From a virus: a stretch of DNA of 20,336 nt. The notes beneath the pieces are model-generated. The model was not told the origin of the DNA, searched no databases, and worked only from the letters and a program-made list of their open reading frames with translations. Position numbers and translations under genes: made by a program. This document shows, piece by piece, positions 1 through 4,525 of the stretch; position 1 is the first letter of the stretch, and the number at the start of each line of letters is the position of its first letter. The stretch spans positions 1-20,336 of the IMG/VR virus record IMGVR_UViG_3300009419_000131; one strand, 5' to 3'.

Positions 1-267
1 AGGTGGGCTTGAGGGTGTCATTGGTATGGTGTATTGGGGAATACCAATAGCTGACCCTTGTGGTGTTACGATTTGGTTGGGGTAAACCGTCAATGGTTGG
101 CCTACCGTATTGCCTTGCGGTGTTAATAAATTAACCGAATTGCCGTTTTGCTGGATATAGCCAGTAACTTGGCCCTGCGGGTTTGTAATTACATAAGTTT
201 GGGCGGCAGCATCTTGCATACCTAACCCTAAAATGTAACCAATAAAAAAGATAATGGTTTCCTTCAT
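1..267 (-). CDS. Secreted Gln/Pro-rich small protein, 3' end cut by window
   Basis: Reading frame of at least 89 codons running off the left edge. The start is the ATG at 265-267, preceded by the repeated leader AAGTGAGATAGAC. The N-terminus (MKETIIFFIGYILGLGMQDAAAQ) reads as a signal peptide with an Ala-rich cleavage region near residues 20-23. The rest is low in charge and rich in Gln, Pro, Thr and Asn, with a loosely repeated TPQG motif (residues about 28-30 as NPQG, then 49-52 and 67-70). It is probably exported to the periplasm or envelope. It is the last visible gene of the leftward unit that starts at the promoter at 823-851. No family is recognised; the coding call rests on the signal peptide, open frame and shared leader. 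Confidence 0.7.
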   Translation of the reverse strand, partial: MKETIIFFIGYILGLGMQDAAAQTYVITNPQGQVTGYIQQNGNSVNLLTPQGNTVGQPLTVYPNQIVTPQGSAIGIPQYTIPMTPSSPP

Positions 268-306
268 GTCTATCTCACTTTTCTTAAAGTACGCCCCCGC
301 AGGGGC
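268..306 (-). promoter_or_regulatory. Intercistronic leader module, copy 1
   Basis: Read on the minus strand: a hairpin GCCCC-TGCG-GGGGC (306-293), then ACTTT...AAAAGT as a short inverted repeat, then AAAAGTGAGATAGAC directly before the ATG at 267. It lies between the stop of the 313-522 gene and the next start. The same arrangement occurs at 523-560 and 3899-3934. GTGA can pair with the UCAC just upstream of the CCUCC at the 3' end of 16S rRNA, so this may be an extended ribosome-binding site. The hairpin followed by a weak T stretch could also attenuate transcription. Confidence 0.6.
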
Positions 307-822: not shown

Positions 823-851
823 AGTTTATTAAGGTAGCTTAACCATGTCAA
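823..851 (-). promoter_or_regulatory. Leftward sigma70-type early promoter
   Basis: On the minus strand, -35 TTGACA (851-846, perfect consensus), 17-bp spacer and -10 TAAACT (828-823, 4 of 6). Upstream is a strongly AT-rich tract (852-900) that could act as an UP element. It would drive the leftward genes at 788 and below. The spacer contains the operator-like palindrome at 829-842. Confidence 0.75.
829..842. promoter_or_regulatory. Operator-like palindrome, site 1
   Basis: TTAAG-GTAG-CTTAA, a perfect 5-4-5 inverted repeat placed between the -35 and -10 boxes of the leftward promoter. It has the same half-sites and spacing as sites at 1500-1513, 1555-1568 and 3595-3608. A protein bound here would block RNA polymerase. 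Confidence 0.7.
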
Positions 852-1135
852 CACTTTTCTGCATATTTATAAAAATATTTTTAGTTGTTGTTTTTTTACA
901 CATAGCTTGCCCAAAGGTGATAGCACCCCATCCATTCAAGAAGTTGGTCTTGAACTAATGCTCCCAAAGGTAGTGTTCAATCGTTATAAGGTTGTCTATC
1001 ACCATTGTCCTTGTAACTTGTGTAGTACCCACTCAAGTCTACGGGGCTTGCTGTCAGGTGTAAACCAGCCCATGTTCTGTTCCACGCCACCCATTTAGGT
1101 GCTTAATATCGTTTGGAGTACGAATGGGACAGGCA
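852..1135. other. Gene-free region with AT tract and several inverted repeats
   Basis: I see no convincing gene here. 852-900 is AT-rich; 873-897 resembles 3546-3574. 905-1130 is more balanced and carries perfect inverted repeats: GGTGATAG (916-923) with CTATCACC (996-1003), enclosing TTCAAGA (935-941) with TCTTGAA (948-954). Further on are ACTTG/CAAGT (about 1016-1036), GGGCT/AGCCC (about 1044-1071) and CCCATT/AATGGG (about 1090-1128). CCCAAAGGT is directly repeated (910-918 and 963-971, first base differing in context). The pattern is compatible with a folded RNA, but direction of transcription and family are unknown. Confidence 0.4.
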
Positions 1136-1250
1136 ATAAAAAAGGGCTTTAGGGGTGGCTTTGTGCTAGAACGGCTTAAGAAATGCCTCTTATCTCATTT
1201 CCTAAACCCACAAAATCACCTCTAAAACCCTTACTTATCGAGTGTTCTAG
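1136..1250 (-). terminator. Very long hairpin terminator or structured 3' RNA with pseudoknot-capable bulge
   Basis: Arms at 1142-1165 and 1209-1232 (24 nt each, 20 exact Watson-Crick matches plus wobbles) continue into inner arms 1173-1185 and 1196-1208 (13 pairs on the minus strand, two of them G-U), with a 10-nt loop. On the minus strand six T residues (1143-1138) follow at once, as in an intrinsic terminator for the helix-turn-helix gene that ends at 1278. The only large interruption is a 7-nt bulge (1166-1172); its exact complement lies outside the hairpin at 1244-1250, so a pseudoknot or alternative fold is possible. Confidence 0.65.
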
Positions 1251-1277
1251 TCCTCAATAATTAAATTCTACTACAAG

Positions 1278-1499
1278 TTATTCCAACTCAGGCCAAATTA
1301 ATTTATGGTTATGCGGAAATAAGGTTTTACGGGTAATTAACCCGTGTGATTCTTTTTCTAATGTTGCAGCTAGGATCACCAGCTTATCTTGCGGAATATC
1401 CCCGTTCTGCCACATAGATACGGCAGGTACAGATACCCCGACTATCTTGGATACACGGGTACATCCACCTAATAATTTGATAATTGCTGTTGCGTTCAT
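1278..1499 (-). CDS. Cro/CI-like (YdaS-type) helix-turn-helix repressor
   Basis: 73 residues from the ATG at 1497-1499. Residues about 13-33 (CTRVSKIVGVSVPAVSMWQNG) fit the helix-turn-helix of small Cro/YdaS-type phage regulators: the 'LGGxTxVSxxVGVSxxAVSxW' pattern with a recognition helix around VPAVSMW, then the usual IP-x3-L-x3-A helix. It has no dimerisation or LexA-like cleavage domain, so Cro-like length rather than full CI. It is transcribed away from the SSB operon, the classical layout of an immunity region. Palindromes in its own promoter and three others suggest it is autoregulated and controls both arms; binding is inferred. No Shine-Dalgarno is seen, and the mRNA may be leaderless. 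It could alternatively act as the antitoxin-type member of a YdaS/YdaT pair, but no partner is adjacent. Confidence 0.85.
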   Translation of the reverse strand: MNATAIIKLLGGCTRVSKIVGVSVPAVSMWQNGDIPQDKLVILAATLEKESHGLITRKTLFPHNHKLIWPELE

Positions 1500-1513
1500 G
1501 TAAGGTATCTTAA
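1500..1513. promoter_or_regulatory. Operator-like palindrome, site 2
   Basis: GTAAG-GTAT-CTTAA on the plus strand, one mismatch from the 5-4-5 palindrome of the other three sites. It abuts the start codon of the helix-turn-helix gene and covers its predicted -10 box, fitting negative autoregulation. Confidence 0.65.
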
Positions 1514-1535
1514 CTTATTTACAACACTTTAGCAA
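1507..1535 (-). promoter_or_regulatory. Promoter of the helix-turn-helix gene
   Basis: On the minus strand, -35 TTGCTA (1535-1530), 17-bp spacer, -10 TAAGAT (1512-1507); each box matches consensus at 4 of 6. With a normal -10 to start distance, transcription would begin at or within a few bases of the ATG, so the message would be leaderless or nearly so. That agrees with the lack of a ribosome-binding site. Confidence 0.55.
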
Positions 1536-1542
1536 ATACTTG

Positions 1543-1571
1543 TTGACTTGTGGTTTAAGGCATCTTAATAT
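1543..1571 (+). promoter_or_regulatory. Rightward early promoter
   Basis: -35 TTGACT (1543-1548, 5 of 6), 17-bp spacer, -10 TAATAT (1566-1571, 4 of 6). It would drive the gene at 1626 and the SSB/exonuclease operon. The operator-like palindrome 1555-1568 overlaps the spacer and the -10 box. Confidence 0.7.
1555..1568. promoter_or_regulatory. Operator-like palindrome, site 3
   Basis: TTAAG-GCAT-CTTAA, perfect 5-4-5 inverted repeat inside the rightward promoter. It lies 41 bp from site 2, so the divergent promoters could be controlled together. Confidence 0.7.
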
Positions 1572-1625
1572 CTTAGGTACGGTATGTGCCGTGTTAACTA
1601 CCCAAGCGGGTGAGAAAGAGTAAAT

Positions 1626-1868
1626 ATGAGTGACTATGACCAGCAGTTAGCTGACCAAGTTCAGACTGAATTTGAGTTAGACGAAACCTTTAAAGACTTG
1701 GAAGATGGTGTACTTCTTACCAATCGTCAAATTGACCTACTACGCCATTGCTGCGGCTTTCCTAAACGCAACACCCATGTAAATCCTGTATTGCGTGATG
1801 TTGTCAATGACATTGGCAATTGCTTTGGCAACCCTTTAAATACATTTCCTAAAATTTGGAGCAAATAA
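1626..1868 (+). CDS. Small hypothetical protein, first gene of the rightward operon
   Basis: 80 residues. The start ATG at 1626 lies behind GGTGAGAAAGAG, the leader type shared with other left-arm genes, and about 55 nt downstream of the predicted promoter. The N-terminal third is acidic (DETFKDLEDG); the middle has LLTNRQIDLLRHCCGFPKR, a helix-like stretch with a Cys pair and basic end. No family is recognised. The stop codon directly precedes the ATG of the SSB-like gene (TAAATG), so the two are surely co-transcribed and probably translationally coupled. Being first in the operon it may be an early regulatory or DNA-transaction protein, but the sequence gives no direct clue. Confidence 0.7.
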   Translation: MSDYDQQLADQVQTEFELDETFKDLEDGVLLTNRQIDLLRHCCGFPKRNTHVNPVLRDVVNDIGNCFGNPLNTFPKIWSK

Positions 1869-2650: not shown

Positions 2651-3394
2651 ATGATAGTTAAAGAAAAGGTGACAGAAAATGGTCATTGGTACACAAAAGA
2701 CGGCACTCCAGCCTATACAACCATCGGCAAGACTGGTGAACGGGCAACCACGCTTCGTGACGCACGGAAACTCGGACTTTTGCCAAGTGTTACAACAATT
2801 AACGGAATGCTATCGAAAGCAGGGCTTGATACATGGAAGCAGCAACAAGTCCTCTTAGCCGCTTTAACCCTGCCTAGACAGCCTGACGAACCTGAAGCTG
2901 ACTGGCTGGCTAGGGTAATGCAAGATAGCAAGGCTACGGGTCGGGAAGCTGCGGAACGGGGTACGGCTATTCATGCGGTTATTGAAGCCTATTTCGATCA
3001 GGTGTATATGCCTGAAAAGCCACCGTACTTGGATGCAGTTAGCAAAGCCTTGCTGGATGCGTTTGGAAACCAGCTATGGCTTCCTGAGAAGTCTTTTGGG
3101 CATCCGCTAGGGTTTGGTGGCAAATGCGACCTGATGGCTAAAAACGGCTTTGTAGTCGATTTTAAGACCAAAGACACGAACCTAGACAAAGTTGATGTTT
3201 ACTTTGAACATGAGATGCAACTGGCGGCATACCGTGAGGGTCTTGGAGTACCTAATGCAAAGTGCGCTATTGTGTTTGTCAACGGCACTACCAATCAGGT
3301 AAAGCTGATTGAAATTGAGGAGCAAAAGCTACAAAATGGCTGGGAATGCTTCCAACATCTGCTACGGGTCTATCAGATCAAGAACGGAATATAA
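2651..3394 (+). CDS. PD-(D/E)XK (Cas4/RecB-like) exonuclease
   Basis: 247 residues from the ATG at 2651. A start at 2612 is possible but would lie inside the Cys-rich gene; 2651 follows that gene's stop and an AAGG motif. The RecB/Cas4-like nuclease motifs are visible in order: RGTAIHAVIEAYF (His108, Glu112), GKCDLM with Asp160, VVDFKTK with Asp170 and Lys172 (the D-x-K metal and catalytic pair), and MQLAAYREG with Gln190 and Tyr194 (QxxxY). Length fits phage exonucleases. It probably resects double-strand ends for recombination, working with the SSB-like protein two genes upstream. No Cys ligands for a Cas4 iron-sulfur cluster are apparent. The stop TAA overlaps a tiny ATG frame (3394-3468), which I do not call as a gene. 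Confidence 0.85.
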   Translation: MIVKEKVTENGHWYTKDGTPAYTTIGKTGERATTLRDARKLGLLPSVTTINGMLSKAGLDTWKQQQVLLAALTLPRQPDEPEADWLARVMQDSKATGREAAERGTAIHAVIEAYFDQVYMPEKPPYLDAVSKALLDAFGNQLWLPEKSFGHPLGFGGKCDLMAKNGFVVDFKTKDTNLDKVDVYFEHEMQLAAYREGLGVPNAKCAIVFVNGTTNQVKLIEIEEQKLQNGWECFQHLLRVYQIKNGI

Positions 3395-3545
3395 TGCGGT
3401 ATGGGCGGTGGGGTAGACAAAATCTATGCTCCTTCACGGGACTACCGCCCACCATCTTAGGGCGTTAAGCCGCCATAGTAGGATGCAGTAATTAGGGAAT
3501 TTTGCGGCTTTCTGCCCTATTTGTAGCAACTGCTAAATACTGCCC
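3395..3545 (+). other. Structured intergenic region after the exonuclease gene
   Basis: Most of the 264-bp gap after the exonuclease has nested inverted repeats: GGGCGGT (3403-3409) with ACCGCCC (3444-3450); AAGCCGC (3467-3473) with GCGGCTT (3504-3510); and overlapping with the last, TAGGG (3493-3497) with CCCTA (3515-3519) inside GCAGT (3485-3489) with ACTGC (3529-3533). The last two sets are mutually exclusive folds. No good poly-T follows a stem, so this is not a simple terminator. A 24-codon frame at 3394-3468 is present but unsupported. Confidence 0.4.
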
Positions 3546-3586
3546 AAATATTTTTTTACTTTTGTTGTTTTTTTGTAAAAAAGTGC

Positions 3587-3615
3587 TTGCTTTATTAAGT
3601 TGGCTTAACTAAACT
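3587..3615 (+). promoter_or_regulatory. Second rightward promoter
   Basis: -35 TTGCTT (3587-3592), 17-bp spacer, -10 TAAACT (3610-3615), followed by GG as in the leftward promoter at 823-851 (also TAAACTGG). The upstream AT-rich tract (3546-3580) resembles that of the leftward promoter. It would drive 3659 and the following genes. The spacer carries operator site 4. Confidence 0.65.
3595..3608. promoter_or_regulatory. Operator-like palindrome, site 4
   Basis: TTAAG-TTGG-CTTAA, perfect 5-4-5 inverted repeat between the -35 and -10 boxes of the second rightward promoter, matching sites 1 and 3 in half-sites and position. Confidence 0.7.
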
Positions 3616-3658
3616 GGAGTTACTCCATTGGGGAGTGAGATAGAAAAAGGAGCAGCAA

Positions 3659-3892
3659 ATGGACTACGAAAAAGAAATCGCAATGTTTGGTACTACTCTT
3701 GGTGTTGTAGAAGCCAACATAGAAAACGCCAGCAACATCAATATGCGTTTAATGGGTATGTTGTCCGATGTTCAAACGCTTATGCAACAAGGCAGCATTG
3801 TTGAAGCAAACCAATTAATTAACCGTGTTAAGTACTACTTTGCAGAATACACAGATACCCGTAATTTGGTATTTGCAGGTGATAAAGTTTAA
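3659..3892 (+). CDS. Small hypothetical helical protein
   Basis: 77 residues, ATG at 3659, preceded by GGAGCAGCAA and further upstream by GGGAGTGAGATAGA, the leader motif shared with other left-arm genes; here an inverted repeat ACTCC/GGAGT (3622-3636) takes the place of the usual hairpins. The protein is almost entirely helical with heptad-like hydrophobics (LGVVEANIENASNINMRLMGMLSDVQTLM) and resembles small phage coiled-coil proteins. No known family or motif. It is the first gene behind the promoter at 3587-3615, so it is likely controlled by the operator there. Confidence 0.65.
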   Translation: MDYEKEIAMFGTTLGVVEANIENASNINMRLMGMLSDVQTLMQQGSIVEANQLINRVKYYFAEYTDTRNLVFAGDKV

Positions 3893-3898
3893 TTAAAC

Positions 3899-3934
3899 GC
3901 CCTTCGGGGCATACTTTTGAAAAGTGAGATAGAG
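3899..3934 (+). promoter_or_regulatory. Intercistronic leader module, copy 3
   Basis: GCCC-TTCG-GGGC hairpin with a stable UUCG-type loop (3899-3910), then ACTTTT-G-AAAAGT inverted repeat, then GTGAGATAGAG directly before the ATG at 3935. It is the same arrangement as on the minus strand at 268-306 and 523-560, so the element serves genes of both early units. Confidence 0.65.
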
Positions 3935-4525
3935 ATGAAAAATATTAATAGATATGTTCCAAAAGGCTTTCAACTCATTAAAGCTGTACCCGAGTTAGGT
4001 CTTGAAGTTTACGGAATATACAGCCCAAAAGTGCTTGCTATTTGCTTTGCAGGCAAAAGAAGCAAGTCTGACTGGTACTACAGCTTTTCTAATGTTGAGT
4101 GCTTAAACAAAAAGATTGACCAAACCATTGAGGGTTTAAACGCTGCAATAGCCGCCAAAATGGAAAAGAAAGTACTTAGAACCAAGAAAGCGGATGTTTC
4201 TGTTGGTGATGTATTTAGGGCTTCTTGGGGTTACGATCAGACCAATATTGACTATTACCAAGTTGTTTCAGTAATTGGCAAGATGGTTGAAGTTTGCAAG
4301 ATTGGCAGCGAGGGTCAAGACGATTGCTTTATGTCAGGTATGTGTGTTCCAGTAGTTGACAACTTTATCGGTAAGCCTTTTAAGAAGTTGGCGCAATGCT
4401 GTGAATACGGTGGTGAAGCAAGAATCAAGATTAATAGTTTTTGTAGTGCTTACAAAATGAAGCCTGTTGCAATGATTGGCAATAAGGCAGTTTATGAAGC
4501 CAGCAGATATTCTTACTACGCATAA
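3935..4525 (+). CDS. Conserved-looking hypothetical protein
   Basis: 196 residues from the ATG at 3935; an upstream TTG at 3917 would start inside the leader module and is unlikely. The N-terminal half has a basic, aromatic segment (GKRSKSDWYYSFSNVE) and a helix rich in Ala and Lys. The second half begins VSVGDVFRASWGYDQTNIDYYQVV, a pattern I know from uncharacterised phage and plasmid proteins (GDVF...SWGYDQTNIDYYQV), followed by Cys residues at several points (VCKIGS, DDCFMSGMCVP, AQCCEYGG). No catalytic motif is recognised. It lies in the middle early unit; the next gene follows after AAGGGGG. Confidence 0.7.
   Translation: MKNINRYVPKGFQLIKAVPELGLEVYGIYSPKVLAICFAGKRSKSDWYYSFSNVECLNKKIDQTIEGLNAAIAAKMEKKVLRTKKADVSVGDVFRASWGYDQTNIDYYQVVSVIGKMVEVCKIGSEGQDDCFMSGMCVPVVDNFIGKPFKKLAQCCEYGGEARIKINSFCSAYKMKPVAMIGNKAVYEASRYSYYA

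What the first reader, a model, noticed from the sequence alone, without database searches (positions are those of the whole stretch)
1136..1250. 37-bp hairpin with a bulge that can form a pseudoknot
A stem with arms 1142-1165/1209-1232 and 1173-1185/1196-1208 is far longer than a normal terminator. Its single bulge (1166-1172) is exactly complementary over 7 nt to 1244-1250, just outside the stem. Pairing is better on the minus strand (inner 13 pairs complete with G-U), and six T follow there, so the RNA is likely the 3' end of the repressor message or a small RNA released from it.
Basis: partly seen in the sequence, partly recalled or inferred. Interest (0 to 1): 0.55.

Follow-up and report, generated by a model that had tools for sequence, protein, structure and literature searches.

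The report
Kissing-loop RNA gene in freshwater phages
The odd hairpin is real: it looks like a small RNA gene of a bacterial virus that folds back on itself through a conserved loop-to-bulge contact, its shape is kept in many related viruses while its letters change, and it sits in front of exchangeable, mostly undescribed structured RNAs.

Summary
The hairpin and its 7-nt bulge complement are present as described, and the pseudoknot is supported by covariation: in 16 distinct close relatives it is paired in all cells, with 5 of 7 pairs changed on both sides. Across 158 distinct hairpins, 130 carry a bulge-to-upstream match of 6 bp or more, with 50 different sequences. The geometry is fixed: outer arm 21-26 nt, bulge 7 nt in 113 of 140.

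It is probably more than the 3' end of the cro message. A -10-like box precedes the 5' hairpin in most relatives, so it looks like its own ~120-nt RNA gene. Right after its U tract comes a second structured RNA. In the window this is a family without an Rfam match, with two short covarying pseudoknots of its own. The same hairpin type is followed by four different 3' RNAs, 54 of 54 distinct cases; one is Rfam's Betaproteobacteria-1.

Best guess: a promoter-attenuator unit whose tertiary contacts gate read-through into the 3' RNA. Gating is inferred; no transcript data exist.

The parts
1278..1499 (-). Cro/YdaS-like helix-turn-helix gene just upstream
   Evidence: Pfam P22_Cro E 1.8e-6 and YdaS E 1.8e-4, both under the curated cut-off; PHROG transcriptional repressor E 2.8e-8
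1265..1270 (-). -10-like box TAGAAT, inferred own promoter; +1 expected near 1258
   Evidence: read; in relatives a box with 5 of 6 or more matches in 32 of 37 distinct upstreams, shuffle rate 29%; at 4-10 nt before the 5' hairpin in 27 of 38
1237..1258 (-). P1, small 5' hairpin (1258-1253 with 1242-1237) whose loop is the pseudoknot strand
   Evidence: invariant in A2; 4 bp or more in 36 of 38 distinct upstreams, but the permissive control gives 58%
1244..1250 (-). PKa, CUAGAAC, pairs with the bulge
   Evidence: 5 of 7 pairs with double changes, all 16 rows paired
1209..1232 (-). outer stem, 5' arm
   Evidence: helix 3, 96.9% of cells paired, 8 pairs with changes on both sides
1173..1208 (-). 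inner stem-loop (1208-1196 with 1185-1173)
   Evidence: 94.7% of cells paired
1166..1172 (-). PKb, GUUCUAG, the 7-nt bulge
   Evidence: bulge is 7 nt in 113 of 140 distinct relatives
1142..1165 (-). outer stem, 3' arm
1138..1143 (-). U tract, six U; expected RNA 3' end near 1137
   Evidence: a U run was required for a hairpin to be counted
905..1123 (-). 3' structured RNA, family 1 (CGYACTCC...), not in Rfam; 3' limit approximate
   Evidence: model R1 match at 992-1123; no Rfam match
1081..1117 (-). family 1 pseudoknot 1: loop of H1 (1117-1114) with YGGA (1084-1081)
   Evidence: helix 2: paired in every row scored; one of its 4 pairs varies (A-U, G-C, G-U, U-A); L310 has UUCU/AGAA (by eye)
1072..1094 (-). 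family 1 pseudoknot 2: loop of H2 (1094-1092) with 1074-1072
   Evidence: helix 4: 94.3% of cells paired, G-C to C-G in 5 rows
823..851 (-). promoter-like site of the next gene, overlapping a TTAAG-CTTAA palindrome at 829-842
   Evidence: 10 of 12 consensus matches; palindrome read

Best explanation
Shown: the minus strand of 1258-1138 encodes a structured RNA: a 5' hairpin loop pairs with a 7-nt bulge in a long hairpin that ends in a U tract, and this fold is conserved while its sequence is not. Supported but not proven: it starts from its own sigma-70-like promoter and ends at its own terminator, giving an RNA of about 120 nt. Inferred mechanism (my choice): it is a promoter-attenuator unit. 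By default RNA polymerase stops at the U tract and releases the short RNA. The 5' strand can capture the bulge (and in type B also the hairpin apex) before the last stem strand is made. That hinders or delays the final helix and lets polymerase read into the structured 3' RNA and the early replication genes. I put about 0.75 on the separate RNA gene and about 0.35 on gating as its use.
For: Covariation of bulge and loop in 16 of 16 type A rows and 50 different pseudoknot sequences in 130 of 158 distinct hairpins. Conserved dimensions: outer arm 21-26 nt, inner stem median 13 bp, bulge 7 nt in 113 of 140. -10-like box in 32 of 37 distinct upstreams, at 4-10 nt before P1 in 27 of 38. A terminator-like long hairpin lies before 253 of 283 anchored 3' RNAs. 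All 54 distinct type B hairpins with 150 nt or more downstream are followed by one of four structured RNA families. In type B a second pairing, linker with apical loop, reaches 6 bp in 72 of 140 rows against a permuted mean of 8.8 and maximum of 19. By simple A-form geometry it cannot coexist in cis with the full stem in any of those 72, which fits a switch.
Against: No RNA data of any kind. The bulge contact alone is sterically compatible with the full stem in 124 of 140, so it need not oppose termination. 28 of 203 family 1 and 2 of 29 family 3 RNAs had no such hairpin found upstream, and bacterial copies of Betaproteobacteria-1 show no such hairpin by eye, so the 3' RNA does not need it. 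23 of 158 distinct hairpins had no 3' bulge detected and 5 had a bulge with less than 6 bp. No clear -35 box was seen in the window. A pairing of the RNA 5' end with bases after the U tract is clear mainly in type B and fails in several type A rows.
Confidence: 0.5

Rival explanations
1. An ordinary but elaborate 3' end of the cro message: the hairpin only terminates and protects transcripts from the early promoter, and the pseudoknot stabilises it.
For: It lies 20-30 nt after the cro stop codon, with a U tract. The loop-bulge contact can coexist with the stem in 124 of 140 relatives.
Against: The -10-like box next to P1. Other genes lie between cro and the unit in some phages. The constant coupling to a structured RNA downstream. 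Terminators need no fixed 7-nt bulge.
Confidence: 0.2
2. A trans-acting small RNA or RNA-protein scaffold, for example a decoy or counter-defence RNA, that needs the shape and not the sequence. Exchange of hairpin types reflects an arms race.
For: Strict geometry with free sequence. Unit sits beside the first early gene. High turnover of hairpin types: 22 clusters.
Against: No partner, target or defence gene was identified. It would not explain the constant coupling to the 3' RNAs.
Confidence: 0.2
3. An RNA that pairs with copies of itself: P1 loop of one molecule with the bulge, and linker with the apex, of another.
For: The second contact is unreachable within one fully folded molecule in 72 of 72 type B rows. 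Kissing loops help assemble the ornate RNAs OLE, ROOL and GOLLD (PMC12286853, passages).
Against: A switch explains the same geometry. Type A lacks the second contact.
Confidence: 0.1
4. The 3' RNA is the working part: a put-like antitermination signal for the early operon, with the hairpin as its first terminator.
For: Position after the cro-like gene parallels HK022 putR, about 270 nt downstream of the PR start, with putL in the other operon (PMC9378689, passages). The window's other early operon also has a structured RNA at 3394-3560.
Against: put RNAs are about 70 nt with two stem-loops; family 1 is over 200 nt with several pseudoknots. A signal placed after the terminator cannot help the same polymerase pass it.
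Confidence: 0.15

Closest known systems
HK022 putL/putR antitermination RNAs
   Same: Phage early-operon cis RNAs; one lies in the rightward operon, one in the leftward (PMC9378689, passages read)
   Different: put is ~70 nt with two stem-loops; here there is a U-tract hairpin with loop-bulge pseudoknot plus an RNA of over 200 nt
Betaproteobacteria-1 RNA (Rfam RF02932)
   Same: Occurs as one of the four 3' RNAs behind the same hairpin type (L010, L023, L027)
   Different: The window's own 3' RNA does not match it; bacterial copies examined lack the hairpin unit
GOLLD and ROOL phage RNAs
   Same: Large, pseudoknotted phage RNAs of unknown function with kissing loops (PMC12286853, passages)
   Different: No Rfam match to either; found here by early genes
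RydC-type small RNAs with a pseudoknot next to the terminator
   Same: Small RNA with pseudoknot and 3' terminator (PMC4337610, search listing and abstract start only; details recalled)
   Different: RydC is shorter and a conserved single gene (recalled); here the fold is kept across many unrelated sequences
Lambda late leader (6S RNA between PR' and tR', recalled)
   Same: A promoter, a short RNA and a terminator that gates downstream genes
   Different: Lambda gating is by protein Q; no conserved pseudoknot known to me; the position differs

Membership tests
Intrinsic terminator | stem followed directly by a U tract | tested here: met
   six U at 1143-1138
Intrinsic terminator | transcript ends there | not testable with these tools
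   no RNA data held
HK022 put RNA | about 70 nt, two stem-loops | tested here: not met
   against the description read
HK022 put RNA | suppresses termination downstream | not testable with these tools
   needs in vitro transcription
Betaproteobacteria-1 RNA (RF02932) | covariance-model score over the gathering cut-off, window RNA | tested here: not met
   no match in the window
Betaproteobacteria-1 RNA (RF02932) | same test, 3' RNA of relatives L010, L023, L027 | tested here: met
   100.8-105.6 bits, cut-off 49.4
GOLLD / ROOL | match to the Rfam model | tested here: not met
   none in the window; none in 24 source entries (L100 given twice)
Pseudoknotted RNA | covariation of the crossing helix | tested here: met
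   helix 2
Small RNA gene | own promoter | tested here: inconclusive
   -10-like box in 32 of 37 upstreams against 29% in shuffles; no clear -35; no start mapped

The most novel reading that the evidence does not exclude
A two-part, plug-in RNA system of phages: an RNA gene defined by shape alone (5' hairpin loop kissing a 7-nt bulge two helical turns up a terminator hairpin) works as a protein-free transcription switch, and exchangeable large RNAs are plugged in behind it, each with its own unknown activity.
Probability: 0.3. Interest if true: 0.9.

Novelty: new variant of a known kind. Interest (0 to 1): 0.74.

Why it matters
Terminator-like hairpins are usually read as plain stops. Here, in more than a hundred distinct phage sequences, the stop carries a covarying tertiary contact of fixed geometry and is coupled to structured RNAs, of which one is a known family of unknown function and the others gave no Rfam match. 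If the contact controls termination, it is a simple, protein-free, sequence-swappable switch. If not, it is still an abundant class of structured RNA gene in freshwater phages, and it gives Betaproteobacteria-1 RNA a genomic setting in which its role can be tested.

Tried and rejected
Chance: rejected. Coding region: family 1 alignments carry 1-nt indels. The antisense 'ORF' cluster c4 in 11 loci and annotated proteins over such units (UOF81610.1 in MW202753.1; UOF80260-UOF80264 in MW202674.1) are most simply spurious. microRNA hits of Rfam (MIR8706, mir-365) score far below their cut-offs and only reflect a long hairpin. The repeat finder reported no inverted repeat at its settings, although the stem is there. 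DNA similarity searches of other family 1 modules and of a type B unit in 50,697 phage records gave nothing; only MW202753.1 came up by DNA, and MW202674.1 through its Cro protein.

Pairing of the RNA 5' end with bases after the U tract: 6 bp or more in 9 of 30, permuted mean 2.0, maximum 6, mostly type B; treated as a type B feature. Family 1 in bacteria: 2 of 399 genomes of the order of G001, one weak. RF02932: 6 of 399 with a match, 4 over the cut-off. Families 2 and 4: 10 of 55 and 9 of 51 predicted pairs have compensatory changes, and both fold better than column shuffles, but for family 2 the reverse strand folds slightly better (-68.7 against -65.1), so its strand is open. RNAalifold for model R1 chose a pseudoknot pairing in place of H1; the model is used only for searching. 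svsR paper PMC12803456: a word search found nothing on cro, promoter, terminator or pseudoknot. Papers on Betaproteobacteria-1 RNA: none held.

One search has 158 distinct hairpins and searches have 140 rows because the duplicate rule differs.

Full report
What is there. The window is a virus record with phage head, lysis and recombination genes. At 1278-1499 on the minus strand lies a Cro/YdaS-like gene; the other early operon starts at 1626 on plus. The stated hairpin, bulge and 7-nt complement are exact. In addition 1244-1250 is the loop of a small hairpin, 1258-1253 with 1242-1237, so the contact is loop to bulge.

Is it conserved. A scan for the Cro-like protein gave 80 loci. Sixteen distinct sequences of the window's hairpin type were aligned. 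The pseudoknot pairs in all 16 rows: CUAGAAC/GUUCUAG, CUGAAAC/GUUUCAG, CUUGAAC/GUUCAAG, GUUGAAC/GUUCAAU, AUAGAAC/GUUCUAU, AUUGGAU/AUCCAAU, AUCGAAC/GUUCGAU. Five of 7 pairs changed on both sides. The whole structure has 97.1% of cells paired against 91.7% in shuffles, and sliding partners by 1 to 3 columns drops it to 30-51%. One named GenBank phage, MW202753.1, has the same hairpin with CUGAUAAC/GUUAUCAG.

Same shape, other letters. Pattern scans brought many more phage loci. Anchored on four kinds of 3' RNA, 283 places were examined and a U-tract hairpin with 14 or more pairs was found before 253, in 22 sequence clusters. Of the 16 clusters with a detectable 3' bulge, 14 match their own upstream by 6 bp or more; six clusters had no bulge by this procedure. 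Of those six I see a match by eye in the L006 type (UUGGCAU/AUGCCAA) and the L149 type, and none in the L180/L102 and L198 types. Of 158 distinct hairpins 130 match, 23 had no bulge detected, 5 fell short. Dimensions hardly vary: outer arm 21-26 nt, bulge 7 nt in 113 of 140, inner stem median 13 bp. A second GenBank phage, MW202674.1, shows a TATAAT box, UUGGCGGA/UCCGCCAA and the U tract after its cro-like gene.

Own promoter. A -10-like hexamer with 5 of 6 or more matches lies within 30 nt upstream of PKa in 32 of 37 distinct upstreams; shuffles give 29%. It lies 4-10 nt before P1 in 27 of 38. In the window the box is TAGAAT at 1270-1265, putting the start at about 1258, the first base of P1. 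I saw no clear -35. The spacing suggests a start site, but a -10-like pause element is not excluded; such an element is discussed for putL in PMC9378689 (passages).

What follows. In the window the U tract is followed by a minus-strand structured RNA, 1123 to about 905, with the near-invariant loop ACUCC in 133 of 139 distinct members. On 35 diverse members 99.1% of cells in 22 pairs are standard pairs (85.9% in shuffles), and 11 pairs carry double changes. This includes two short pseudoknots, in which 1 of 4 and 1 of 3 pairs show double changes. A third pairing, GGUGR with YCACC, is seen by eye. It has no Rfam match (for the distant copy L198). Type B hairpins, 54 distinct cases with 150 nt or more downstream, are followed by four unrelated RNAs in 26, 12, 9 and 7 cases. 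The set of 12 contains Betaproteobacteria-1 RNA, Rfam RF02932 (L010, L027; L023 also has it). So hairpins and 3' RNAs are exchanged independently at the U tract. Bacterial copies of RF02932 and some family 1 members (L087, L095, L166, L186) lack the hairpin.

Context. The units lie in the same direction as the genes around them, between a first early gene (Cro-like, a family without a hit, or HNH) and replication or helicase genes. This is where lambda-type phages keep nutR or putR.

How it may work. In type B a second match, linker to apical loop, is present in 72 of 140 rows (permuted mean 8.8, maximum 19). Either it belongs to an earlier folding state, before the last strand of the terminator is made, or it forms between molecules. 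I prefer the first: an attenuator in which capture of bulge and apex hinders the final helix. The bulge contact alone is compatible with the stem in 124 of 140, so for the window's own type A the gating claim is weaker.

Novelty. Rfam 15 has no model that matches hairpin or family 1. Nine literature searches in the held open library showed no paper that describes them; most subscription papers are not held, and I read listings only, plus passages of PMC9378689 and PMC12286853 (and a word search of PMC12803456 that returned no passage).

Verdict. Observation confirmed; interpretation partly supported; an unexpected class of modular phage RNA, mechanism open.

Noticed in passing
window 3394-3560 (+): A second structured RNA in the other early operon (GGGCGUUAAGCCGCC...GCGGCUUU...AACUGC...GCCC), right after the exonuclease gene; relatives carry several exchangeable versions. 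No Rfam match in the window.
   Followed up: partly
window 263-306, 517-569, 3611-3660, 3900-3940: A repeated element before start codons: a short hairpin, then GTGAGATAG and the start codon; 263-306 and 517-569 also match each other, the other two were seen by eye.
   Followed up: no
window 829-842, 1501-1513, 1555-1568, 3596-3609: TTAAG-N4-CTTAA palindromes near promoter-like sites and before cro; likely operators of the Cro-like protein.
   Followed up: no
L156 3554-3673 (-): A second unit in the same phage contig: U-tract hairpin with CCGGUGAU/AUCACCGG, then Betaproteobacteria-1 RNA, on the opposite strand to its family 1 unit.
   Followed up: partly
L390 2562-2693: A chimeric 3' RNA: 3' half of family 1 with an unrelated 5' half, behind a normal hairpin unit; the 3' RNAs are themselves modular.
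   Followed up: no
L100, L132, L139, L148, L159: Family 1 RNAs preceded by a different long hairpin without a U tract, behind an HNH gene.
   Followed up: no
window 1278-1626: Divergent early operons with a Cro-like gene and no repressor gene in between, unlike Acinetobacter phage Ab1656-2, which has a LexA/CI-type gene there.
   Followed up: no
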